Shown: positions 30,435-60,448 of the stretch, one piece after another
Layout of the letters: each line of letters starts with the position of its first letter
Position numbering within the stretch: position 1 is the stretch's first letter
DNA from: Arthrobacter sp. SLBN-112
GTDB taxonomy: Bacteria; Actinomycetota; Actinomycetes; Actinomycetales; Micrococcaceae
Direction of reading: 5' to 3'
DNA length: 64,000 nt
Assembly (NCBI RefSeq): GCF_030944625.1
Contig: NZ_JAUSXY010000001.1
Location: 3,720,001 to 3,784,000, forward strand
Notes under the pieces: generated by a model
Told to the model about the DNA's origin: nothing
The model's input: only the letters and a program-made list of their open reading frames with translations
Databases searched by the model: none
Position numbers and translations under genes: made by a program

Positions 30435-31058
30435 TCAGTGCGACCGGAGCCGGTTGCGGTTCCACCATGCGAAAGCGCCGGCCGCTATGGCCAACAGCAC
30501 CGTTCCCAGCGCAATAGGCAGGAGTGCCGGTCCGCCGGGGCCCTCTCCGCGGGCGGGGGAAACGGCAGCCAGCTGGGTTGGCGCCGCGGACCGGGTGACC
30601 GGGCTGTTCCAGTCCTGCCCGCTGGACGGGCCGGTGGGCGGCCGATAACCGGCATCGGCTGAAGTGGCTGCGGTTGCCGCGCCGTCGGGAGCTGCCTCCG
30701 CGTCTGCGGACTGGGCCGGAGCGTCGGCCGGTAGCGGGGTGCCGGCCGGGGGTTCGGCAGGCTGTGGCGGCTGGACCGGCGCGTCCCCGGCGGGAGGCGC
30801 CGGGGACGCGGGCGGCGATACCGGGTCCTTGGATTTACGCGGCCGCCCCGTTTGGCCGGTGTCCGGGCTGCTGGCAAGGACGGGCAGGCAGAGCATCCCG
30901 CAGTCTGGCGTCGTTTGGGTCCCTGACGCGAGGGTGGGCGAGGGCTGCGGGGTGGCGGCGAGCGCCGGGCCAGCCGGAAAGATGCCGAAGGCCAGGGCCA
31001 GGACAGCTGCTGTTGCCGTCGTCGAAACAGTGCGGAGAACCGGTGCGGACGGGGCCAT
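30435..31058 (-). CDS. secreted Pro/Ala-rich protein with C-terminal membrane anchor
   Basis: 207 residues. A signal peptide (about 10-35, ending '[12 protein letters not shown]') is followed by a short segment with two cysteines (PDCGMLCLP), a long Pro/Ala-rich stalk (60-150) and a C-terminal hydrophobic helix '[22 protein letters not shown]' with basic tail NRNRLRSH. There is no LPXTG-like sortase motif. This is a type I surface stalk protein. It follows the FtsK-like gene by 122 bases on the same strand and may be the last gene of the kinase/FHA/Fn3 cluster. No known family recognised. Confidence 0.7.
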
Positions 31059-31130
31059 TGCTACCTTTCGCTGCGCGCAGTCCCCCCACCGCGGCTTTCT
31101 GGTGTCCCCGGTAGTCTTCTACAACGCCCT

Positions 31131-60200: not shown

Positions 60201-60448
60201 TCCAACACCCGCGAAGGATAATTAAGGCGCCCCACAGCATTCTTAGCCTTCGACACCACCCACACGCCACCATCATTCAACTCAACCTCAGTGGTCTTAA
60301 ACCCCGGATACAACACCGCACCCGTCACCACCACACCCACCACCACACCAAACGCAGTACCGGCGAACCACCGCGAGCCCAGCAGCCGGCGCTTCCAGGG
60401 CATGGCTGAAGCAGGGCTTTCAGCGCGCGCTTGGTCCCGACGTTTCAT
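54275..60448 (-). CDS. giant membrane-anchored Ig-like/Fn3 surface protein 2
   Basis: 2,057 residues from the ATG at 60448. A basic N-terminus (MKRRDQARAESPASAMPWKR) is followed by the same membrane helix and beta-region as protein 1 (nearly identical residues to about 385). After that come ten Ig-like repeats matching those of protein 1 one for one ('LDNDSDPDGDVLT', 'DWIDPDGDDLF', 'KNDSDPQGGALRLAQV' and so on) but diverged, then Fn3-like domains from about 1,485 and a Cys-containing C-terminus ('CWKPHGTTYSGDGQWYYIM'). It is a surface protein with the long part outside. This is the first gene of the cluster. Confidence 0.9.
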   Translation of the reverse strand: MKRRDQARAESPASAMPWKRRLLGSRWFAGTAFGVVVGVVVTGAVLYPGFKTTEVELNDGGVWVVSKAKNAVGRLNYPSRVLDGAVTPASTTFDVLQHAGEVFVDDATGSTLNQVSPANMRLGGDKRLPGSAAVSFGAQTISVTDPGSGKVWAVSPSTVNGFDEEASEPVLVGSEGIVSAVGADDRIYSADPKTGVVSVTGVDADGVVTSSESGAWDGLKGAGDLQMTVVGDKPVVLDAAAGNLFLPGGKRLVLENARDAKLQQAGPGSDFVAVATRKALLKQPLDGAAAKTVSFDGEGVPAAPVQLGGCVHAAWSGANKYVRDCTNDADDKNVPVPKASASPSYVFRVNRDLVVLNDVNSGNVWLVNQNMQLVNNWDDVIPPQQTSDDADKDSADEVQQTVLPDRTKPNSAPVAKPDTFGVRAGKTTVLPVLDNDSDPDGDVLTVRTPDPLKSGLLAPIYGATGFQVSVGADKTGSETFKYTVDDGRGLSASADVTLNIVPPGENSAPRQKPNRNTTLVVQAGKVVSQNILTDWIDPDGDDLFVVGATGSDPRDQVRIRPDGLLSFQDSGAEPGRKTVTVTVSDGRSTTEGKVTVDVRAPGALPPIANADHVVAVAGVDTVIAPLKNDSDPQGGALRLAQVTPDGNSTATMGADQQTFTFNSTAEGAHYVTYLATNGPASAQQLVRVDVVPGSGDGAPVAVRDTALLPSGGNVLVDVLGNDSDPSGGVLVVQSVTAADGLPISVSVLDHSVVRITDIRAQGQLTVKYTISNGKASATGEIAVLVVPAPAKLQAPQAKPDEATVRAGDVVTIPVLANDTDPNGGALTLEPQLAQQPDPADGRIFTAGGAVRFIAGDVPKTVYAIYKVTNESGQSDSQQVTIRIRARDDQLNTRPEPKNLTARVVAGMTVRIPVPLDGVDSDGDSVQLTGVDKAPAMGTAVVKDGYLEFTAAGNAAGTDTFTYRVRDRIGAENTGTVIVGIAPAEATNQKPIAVDDAVDVRPGRKIAVDALTNDSDPDGDPITLVSNGFEARPDLGVEAAEGGKVLLTAPNAAGNESVSYKIQDDKKAQAGAVIRVKASPDAALKAPVAKDDVVTQAETLGKSAVDVPVLKNDSDPDGVASELKIGLPDGNPNARVTGDGTVRVTLGPADQLVPYTVTDVDGQSATAVIWVPGQGEQHPTLAKTEPVEVMSGKEITLNLADYVRVREGRTPRITQVDKVRVLGAEPDNVVAGNGNALRYAALKDYVGPGSITFEVTDGTGPDDPAGLKSTLSIITKVIPDPNANHPPTFSGATLDVPAGESATLDLGNLAKDVDAGDQDKLKFELDGSLPEGFNATVDKATLKVTPDSARAAGWKGSIPLKVTDGRSDPVRATITATVVASNRPLPTANEDVVEKANAGKSETVNVLANDFNPFPETPLRITSATVETGSAAGQPAVSGDSITVTPASGFKGVMVVRYTIMDKTGDVSRQTDGRVRLTVRDRPDAPSAPSATDVRSRTAVLKWTPPSDNGAAITKYTVHSASGFSQECATTTCTLTGLTNDVKYVFTVTATNEVNESDPSPASNEIRPDEKPSPPDAPAVKAGDKNMEITWPAAKTEGSAVKNYNLEISPPPANGAAVKNGVTGLSYTWPGLTNGVRYKVRAQAVNELGPSDWSPYSAEDNPAGVPAAPAAPTSSVASSVGTSNQLKVDWNEPNTNGDAIRNYYVTMSGGGGAAQTQMVAGTVRTANFTANNSEASYTFTVQAENKAGKGAVSAASAPRRATGKLAQVSGVSATEANTGGAGRSVTINFRELTAAERNGSTYAEVSYTYRASTGQSGPIRPGQTVGGFANGSSTAITVIANSSVAPSSDASTPATANPYGAPGTPSASGQDGAENQKNLTLSWASPAAGSYDIAYTQIRIDGGGWERVAASGSRTINTAGFNERHSIDVQTVNSRGTGGPLASASAQSGAAKTRWTTRLASGMDRSCTDLPGATSYDPQNFTCDGQSGYNRPWMSHLDTFDVMCWKPHGTTYSGDGQWYYIMRGSPNATRWIQSLHTTLGSPAQSGVPLCTFPTGATP
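59303..60365 (-). repeat. 1,063-bp near-identical block, copy 2 (giant gene 2)
   Basis: It matches 52991-54053 over its full length without gaps. One protein-level change is Ser for Gly in 'TVSFDGEG' against 'TVGFDGEG'. The sharp edges, at GACGTCGTCCCAG on one side and GCAGTACCGGCG on the other, mark where similarity at DNA level stops. Confidence 0.93.

What the first reader, a model, noticed from the sequence alone, without database searches (positions are those of the whole stretch)
30435..60448. PFNA-like cluster fused to an FHA-FtsK motor and doubled giant surface proteins
In one direction, mostly with overlapping ends, lie two giant Ig/Fn3 membrane-anchored proteins, MoxR, DUF58, a transglutaminase-fold protein, RDD/FHA, PP2C, FHA, a Ser/Thr kinase with an Fn3-like ectodomain, an FHA/winged-helix remnant, an FHA-FtsK ATPase of EssC type and a secreted stalk protein. 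The kinase/Fn3/MoxR/DUF58/TGase/PP2C core is known as PFNA in bifidobacteria. A type VII-like motor ATPase placed in the same unit, without WXG100 genes, suggests a phospho-regulated secretion or surface-assembly system, possibly with the giants as cargo.
Basis: partly seen in the sequence, partly recalled or inferred. Interest (0 to 1): 0.9.

Follow-up and report, generated by a model that had tools for sequence, protein, structure and literature searches.

The report
Unusual type VII secretion gene cluster
A soil bacterium carries what looks like a type VII protein-export machine of an undescribed type, merged with a gene set known from gut bifidobacteria, while its likely exported proteins are encoded elsewhere in the genome and, across its genus, are present or absent together with it.

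Summary
The gene order is real: on the minus strand run two giant Ig/Fn3 proteins, MoxR, DUF58, transglutaminase, RDD/FHA, PP2C, FHA, Ser/Thr kinase, a broken FHA/helix gene, a 1481-aa FHA-FtsK ATPase and a secreted stalk protein. The inference 'no WXG100, so giants may be cargo' fails. A WXG100-like gene lies downstream of this FtsK in 42 of 73 named relatives with enough sequence. In the window's own genome the matching WXG100 sits elsewhere, with five long frames bearing the same N-terminal domain. In 41 genomes of the genus, FtsK, transglutaminase and this WXG100 occur in the same 36 and are missing from the same 5, which needs 4 changes on the best tree, at least 2 forced. ATPases linked to MoxR/DUF58/transglutaminase lie in one clade, apart from two T7SSd-like ones. 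Best reading: an unnamed type VII subtype with the PFNA gene set as envelope and regulatory half. Not shown: secretion, and the role of the giants, which look like machine parts. Seven searches of the held papers found no link between PFNA and type VII secretion.

The parts
54275..60448 (-). Giant A, 2057 aa: N-terminal hydrophobic helix, conserved ectodomain (about residues 53-385), Ig repeats, Fn3, C-terminal domain
47996..54106 (-). Giant B, 2036 aa: same architecture; ectodomain 98.8% identical to giant A, Ig part 58.5%
46955..47926 (-). MoxR-type AAA ATPase (start placed by me at an internal ATG)
45537..46880 (-). DUF58 protein (start placed by me at an internal ATG)
42913..45540 (-). Multi-pass membrane transglutaminase-fold protein, 875 aa
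41162..42916 (-). Zn-ribbon + RDD membrane domain + C-terminal FHA-like region
40230..41165 (-). PP2C phosphatase
38171..40243 (-). 690-aa protein with C-terminal FHA domain
36417..38174 (-). Ser/Thr kinase (HRD and DFG motifs present), one hydrophobic helix, small ectodomain
35623..36328 (-). FHA-like/helix gene, broken here by an in-frame stop and a frameshift; intact copies exist in relatives
31181..35626 (-). FHA-FtsK ATPase (EccC/EssC relative): N-terminal region with beta-grasp-like order, FHA, two hydrophobic stretches, FtsK ATPase domains
30435..31058 (-). Secreted Pro-rich stalk protein with C-terminal hydrophobic helix

Best explanation
The cluster is the machine locus of a type VII secretion system of an undescribed subtype. 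The FHA-FtsK protein is the membrane motor; a WXG100 protein and longer proteins with N-terminal WXG domains are its likely substrates, encoded elsewhere in this genome. The kinase, PP2C phosphatase and FHA proteins form a phospho-threonine switch that acts on the motor through its FHA domain. The giants, anchored by an N-terminal helix, are most likely an envelope-spanning part of the machine (in the place of TsdI/EsaA), with a shared membrane-near ectodomain and diverging Ig/Fn3 stalks; MoxR, DUF58 and transglutaminase mature or assemble them. Shown here: gene linkage, joint presence and absence, phylogeny, domain content and sequence conservation. Inferred: secretion, the phospho-switch, and every role of giants, MoxR, DUF58 and transglutaminase.
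For: FtsK orthologue (taken as 81% identity or more; G030 in fragments) in 36 of 41 genus genomes, TGase in the same 36, the unlinked WXG100 in the same 36 and in none of the same 5; in 7 of the 36 a copy lies within 2 kb of FtsK (coordinates). The 5 need 4 changes on a tree of 40 genomes (3-4 in bootstrap trees), at least 2 forced. WXG100-like gene under 200 aa downstream in 42 of 73 named loci, a longer WXG-bearing protein in 20 of 73; 13 of 20 small proteins tested reach Pfam WXG100 at E<=1e-3 and 6 of 20 its curated cut-off. MoxR, DUF58 and TGase in the fetched stretch in 22 of 39 unnamed orthologue-level loci, plus G185 with the set on the other side of a diverged FtsK. In four loci (L097, L103, L107, L109) the order is rearranged but the set stays together. 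All 24 set-linked ATPases fall in one 39-row clade (99), two T7SSd-like ones outside it. FtsK dN/dS 0.037-0.072 in 12 comparisons out of 19 genus loci held. FHA G130 R131, S145, H148, N166, G167 invariant in 30 rows. One WXG-bearing protein of the window genome has a Peptidase_C2 domain over its cut-off.
Against: No secretion data. The window strain's FHA-wH gene is broken. In 16 of 39 orthologue-level loci the MoxR/DUF58/TGase set was not seen in the fetched stretch (two of these have under 7 kb upstream and one is split). In the genus of G117 the PFNA-type giant is in 20 of 27 genomes but the T7SSd-like ATPase in 6 of 27, one of them without the giant, so the PFNA set can exist without that motor. 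G020 has a second giant-DUF58-TGase-kinase set without FtsK or MoxR in the stretch read. Seven of the 20 small proteins tested miss E 1e-3 for WXG100, and 31 of 73 named loci have no WXG100-like gene within 5 kb downstream. The 80 named loci are the best-scoring of 577 and lean to near relatives.
Confidence: 0.75

Rival explanations
1. Two neighbours by history: a type VII motor and a PFNA surface-sensing module that share a locus and perhaps a promoter but do different jobs.
For: PFNA-type giants without the T7SSd-like motor in 15 of 20 genomes of G117's genus; FtsK orthologues without the set in the stretch read in 16 of 39 loci, such as L104, L106, L108, L110, L112-L116, L119; a second set without FtsK in G020.
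Against: Overlapping reading frames; the set stays with the motor through rearrangement; joint absence from 5 of 41 genomes; early branches of the ATPase clade (L121, L109, L103, L107, L105) all carry the set, though some of those forks have support of only 81-88.
Confidence: 0.15
2. One reading: a WXG100-free motor that exports or assembles the giants on the surface.
For: No WXG100 gene in the window cluster; giants are the first genes of the run.
Against: The matching WXG100 is in the genome and is present and absent with the cluster; relatives have WXG100-like genes next to FtsK; the giants have an N-terminal hydrophobic helix and no WXG100 match.
Confidence: 0.06
3. A decaying system: the locus is a relic that has lost its WXG100 and its FHA-wH gene.
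For: FHA-wH broken; no WXG100 in the locus.
Against: The other genes are open; FtsK is under strong purifying selection in this lineage; the WXG100 is kept elsewhere at 74-90% identity in 14 near relatives. The break may also be a recent strain-specific event or a sequencing fault.
Confidence: 0.04

Closest known systems
T7SSd / T7SSe (Garrett, Higginson and Palmer 2024, PMC11217815; outline with abstract, sections 7 and 9, and passages seen)
   Same: FHA-bearing EccC/EssC-type ATPase with pThr-binding positions kept, WXG100, membrane Ser/Thr kinase, a very large Ig-domain envelope protein (TsdI); PP2C and an FHA protein in T7SSe
   Different: The ATPase lies apart from two T7SSd-like ones; [quoted passage not shown] MoxR and transglutaminase have no occurrence in that paper's main text (DUF58 was not looked up there). 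TsdH was not sought here
PFNA operon of bifidobacteria (PMC8430577 and PMC6803598; passages seen)
   Same: Kinase, FN3 protein, MoxR, DUF58, transglutaminase, with FHA in some versions; the giants' ectodomain aligns (24% identity) with that of a PFNA-ordered cluster in G117
   Different: Here a type VII motor and, in relatives, WXG100-like genes belong to the run; FtsK, WXG and type VII have no occurrence in PMC8430577. Gene order differs: the kinase comes after the transglutaminase
T7SSa and T7SSb (mycobacterial ESX; Bacillota Ess/Yuk)
   Same: Motor family; best solved chains are 4nh0 (named FtsK/SpoIIIE there; an EccC by recall), YukB and EccC5
   Different: NCBIfam cut-offs for EssC, EccCa and EccCb not met; no EccB/D/E, EsaA, EssA, EssB or YukD match at E<=1e-3 among the 13 cluster and flanking proteins scanned

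Membership tests
Type VII secretion (general) | EccC/EssC-type membrane ATPase with tandem FtsK domains | tested here: met
   similarity strong, but below the equivalog cut-offs of the named subtypes
Type VII secretion (general) | WXG100 partner in the genome | tested here: met
   G000 C1 895254-895517, under the Pfam cut-off (21.2 against 27.3 bits) but like the linked ones; linked in 42 of 73 relatives
Type VII secretion (general) | Motor-dependent secretion of WXG proteins | not testable with these tools
   needs experiment
T7SSa | EccB, EccD, EccE, MycP in the locus | tested here: not met
T7SSb | EsaA, EssA, EssB, YukD/EsaB in the locus | tested here: not met
   EssC cut-off not met; rest of the genome not searched
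T7SSd | ATPase in the TsdC clade | tested here: not met
   the two TsdC-like rows were assigned by me from gene order in G117/G173, not by accession, and the tree is the quick kind
T7SSd | Large Ig-domain TsdI with signal peptide and C-terminal helix | tested here: inconclusive
   Ig domains present; an N-terminal helix but no C-terminal one seen by eye; no topology program was run
T7SSd | TsdH, a small single-helix protein | not tested
   not sought; the stalk protein has one helix but was not compared
PFNA | kinase, FN3 giant, MoxR, DUF58, transglutaminase together | tested here: met
   order differs
PFNA | Run consists of 5 to 8 genes beginning with the kinase, in fixed order | tested here: not met
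   12 genes, giants first, FtsK inside the run; definition from passages of PMC8430577
EsaB/YukD ubiquitin-like partner fused to the motor | beta-grasp fold at FtsK residues 1-90 | tested here: inconclusive
   predicted strand/helix order fits; fold search rows covered residues 101-203

The most novel reading that the evidence does not exclude
A further type VII subtype, spread over many families of Actinomycetota, in which the PFNA set (giants, MoxR, DUF58, transglutaminase, kinase) is the envelope and control half of the secretion machine; the bifidobacterial PFNA operon, studied as a cytokine-binding sensor, would then be a motor-less relative of a secretion apparatus, and the genome-wide WXG proteins its scattered effectors.
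Probability: 0.45. Interest if true: 0.85.

Novelty: new variant of a known kind. Interest (0 to 1): 0.75.

Why it matters
It joins two literatures that the searches here found unconnected: PFNA operons of bifidobacteria and type VII secretion. It gives Arthrobacter and many related Actinomycetota a candidate export system with scattered effectors, several of which score below the usual WXG100 cut-off and are easily missed, and it makes the PFNA function question testable by simple gene deletions.

Tried and rejected
Rejected: the well-scoring WXG100 at C1 4334790 as the partner; a WXG100 over the cut-off is in 40 of 41 genus genomes, the 5 without the cluster included. Rejected: the second FHA-FtsK at C1 2383284 as part of this system; it lies in another part of the tree and no set member was found beside it. 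None of 21 paralogue loci (L048, L049, L122-L140) holds MoxR, DUF58 and TGase, though their flanks were shorter. Rejected: PFNA near T7SSd in G117 (giant and ATPase about 23 kb apart) as proof of a link, since 15 of 20 genomes of that genus with the giant lack that ATPase.

Led nowhere: the reverse test (TGase in genomes without FtsK across the order) failed on the server, so how often the set occurs without the motor in the order is unknown. Fold of the giants' ectodomain: single-sequence model of mean pLDDT 40.8, all strands after one helix; profile hits among solved structures no better than E 0.004, mostly designed propellers and trefoils; single weak SGL and NHL hits. 'Beta-propeller-like' is only a hint, and I make no use of it. 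Fold search of FtsK 1-205 was filled by FHA matches. PADLOC hits of kinase and FtsK look like general kinase and FtsK similarity. The promoter scan found none and the terminator scan 8 against 8.0 expected.

Dropped rows: of the 42 order-level genomes that I counted as orthologue-level, G000 is the window itself, G132 was not fetched (contig edge) and G174 gave only a 5.3-kb contig, leaving 39; G185 (33% identity) and G160 (split) are among the 39. L120 (G160) was left out of the ATPase tree. G030 (broken assembly) was left out of the genus tree, leaving 40. Two same-type giant pairs were set aside. Twelve of 19 genus loci were given to the dN/dS script.

Full report
What is there. On the minus strand of window 30435-60448 lie, 5' to 3', giant A, giant B, MoxR, DUF58, transglutaminase, Zn-ribbon/RDD/FHA, PP2C, FHA, Ser/Thr kinase, FHA-wH, FHA-FtsK and a stalk protein. 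Six junctions between DUF58 and FtsK overlap by 4-14 bases. The FHA-wH gene is broken by an in-frame stop and a frameshift; it is intact in all 22 other loci visible, whose output was cut. The window lies in a 4.39-Mb single-contig genome; the nearest giants are annotated from Arthrobacter, Pseudarthrobacter and Paenarthrobacter.

Linkage beyond the genus. An order-wide search of 149 genomes separates orthologues (42% identity or more, nearly full length) from paralogues (37% or less), with two in-between cases, G185 (33%, 587 bits) and the split G160. Of 39 such loci read (L083-L121), 22 have MoxR, DUF58 and TGase in the fetched stretch, in four of them in another order. G185 has, in two neighbouring stretches, a WXG-motif small gene (not tested with Pfam), a longer WXG-like protein, FtsK, the start of a giant, MoxR, DUF58, TGase and, on the other strand, a kinase. 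In 16 of 39 the set was not seen. Of 21 paralogue loci none has the three genes. In a quick maximum-likelihood tree of 62 ATPases, all 24 set-linked ones lie in one 39-row clade (99), and the two T7SSd-like ones (L161, L162) lie outside it. Among 80 named loci kept out of 577 (Arthrobacter, Pseudarthrobacter, Paenarthrobacter, Sinomonas, Brachybacterium, Microbacterium, Herbiconiux, Cryobacterium, Rathayibacter, Promicromonospora, Cellulosimicrobium, Isoptericola, Oerskovia and others), TGase, kinase and FHA-wH are present in 73 of 73 with at least 7 kb upstream, DUF58 in 62 of 72 with at least 9.3 kb. One of the 80 is a Bifidobacteriaceae metagenome assembly (L250) with RDD/FHA, PP2C, FHA, kinase, FHA-wH, FtsK and two WXG100-like genes; its contig ends before the place of the other genes.

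WXG100. Downstream of FtsK, 42 of 73 named loci with at least 1.2 kb carry a WXG100-like gene under 200 aa within 5 kb, and 20 of 73 a longer protein with such a domain; in the 80 loci 8 further WXG matches lie elsewhere. The profile was built from 13 proteins that reach Pfam WXG100 at E<=1e-3, out of 20 tested (18 from beside FtsK, 2 from L161); 6 of the 20 reach the curated cut-off. Inside Arthrobacter and its kin the place varies: FtsK then WXG100 in A. oryzae CC159 (L204), FtsK, stalk, WXG100 in P. sulfonivorans ALL 4 (L252), FtsK then stalk in the window.

The missing partner. The window genome has such a small protein at C1 895254-895517, minus strand; Pfam scores it 21.2 bits against a cut-off of 27.3. 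Five long frames have the same N-terminal domain; one of them has a Peptidase_C2 domain, and for one (C1 2199625) the start is unsure. Searched in 41 genus genomes, the small protein is found in 36, exactly those with an FtsK orthologue (the tally of 41 of 41 there counts paralogues) and with TGase; G010, G012, G019, G022 and G032 have none of the three, and no other match to it at E<=1e-3. In seven of the 36 (G004, G005, G013, G015, G018, G020, G024) a copy lies within 2 kb of FtsK. If the 5 were placed at random the chance of a perfect match is 1 in 749,398 (my arithmetic, relatedness ignored). On a tree of the chromosomal FtsK of 40 of the genomes the 5 need 4 changes, at least 2 forced. 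This is the strongest evidence that motor, PFNA set and WXG proteins form one system. FtsK is under strong purifying selection in this lineage (dN/dS 0.037-0.072 in 12 comparisons).

Giants. Their N-terminal helix and following ectodomain align across giants of set-linked loci, the second set of G020 and the PFNA-ordered cluster of G117: 18-47% identity to giant A, giant B apart. In the window and in six further giant pairs of the two types, the ectodomain (53-385) is 90.7-99.7% identical within the genome and the Ig part 52.7-58.5%; between genomes, same-type ectodomains are 81.1-90.1% identical in the ten comparisons made (pairs recognised by shared contig length). The two ranges nearly touch, but within each genome the ectodomains are far closer than the stalks. 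The ectodomain thus seems to be homogenised within genomes while the stalks diverge, as expected if both giants sit in one shared assembly; that reading is inference.

Comparison with the literature. T7SSd has ATPase, WXG100, kinase, TsdH and the Ig giant TsdI; T7SSe adds PP2C and an FHA protein (PMC11217815, outline with abstract, sections 7 and 9 and passages). MoxR and transglutaminase have no occurrence in its main text. The PFNA papers (PMC8430577 and PMC6803598, passages) describe kinase, FN3, MoxR, DUF58 and transglutaminase; FtsK has no occurrence in either, WXG none in the first (not looked up in the second). Searches of the held library listed no paper that I could see joining the two; papers outside it were not searched.

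Limits. Secretion is not shown. A PFNA-type set exists without this motor and the motor without the set in the stretch read, so the coupling may be looser outside the clade around the window. The order-wide reverse test could not be run. Whether G117 is a bifidobacterium is my guess from genome size and gene order.

Noticed in passing
window 47996-60448: The two giants have near-identical ectodomains within a genome but diverged Ig/Fn3 parts, a sign of gene conversion limited to about residues 53-385.
   Followed up: partly
G000 C1 1999000-2006500 (L295): A 458-aa WXG-bearing protein with a calpain-type Peptidase_C2 domain; looks like a type VII effector.
   Followed up: partly
L051 (G020); second TGase copies also in G013 and G027: A second giant-DUF58-TGase-kinase set without MoxR and FtsK in the stretch read.
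   Followed up: partly
L132 (G075): PP2C-FHA-kinase-FHA-wH near a diverged FHA-FtsK paralogue that is followed by several WXG-motif small genes.
   Followed up: no
L161-L163 (G117), and G173, G189, G195, G197: A T7SSd-like ATPase lies 10-24 kb from a PFNA-type giant in five genomes of one genus; in G117 the T7SSd-like stretch has 51% G+C against 66% for its neighbour.
   Followed up: partly
window 60591-61826: An adenylate/guanylate cyclase-like gene just upstream of giant A, same strand.
   Followed up: no
window 5415-5530 and 6999-7113, minus strand: Two SAM-IV riboswitches about 1.5 kb apart.
   Followed up: no
L244: A record named Sporosarcina beigongshangi (a Bacillota name, by recall) carries a cluster like those of the Actinomycetota rows; perhaps a mislabelled or contaminated assembly.
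   Followed up: no
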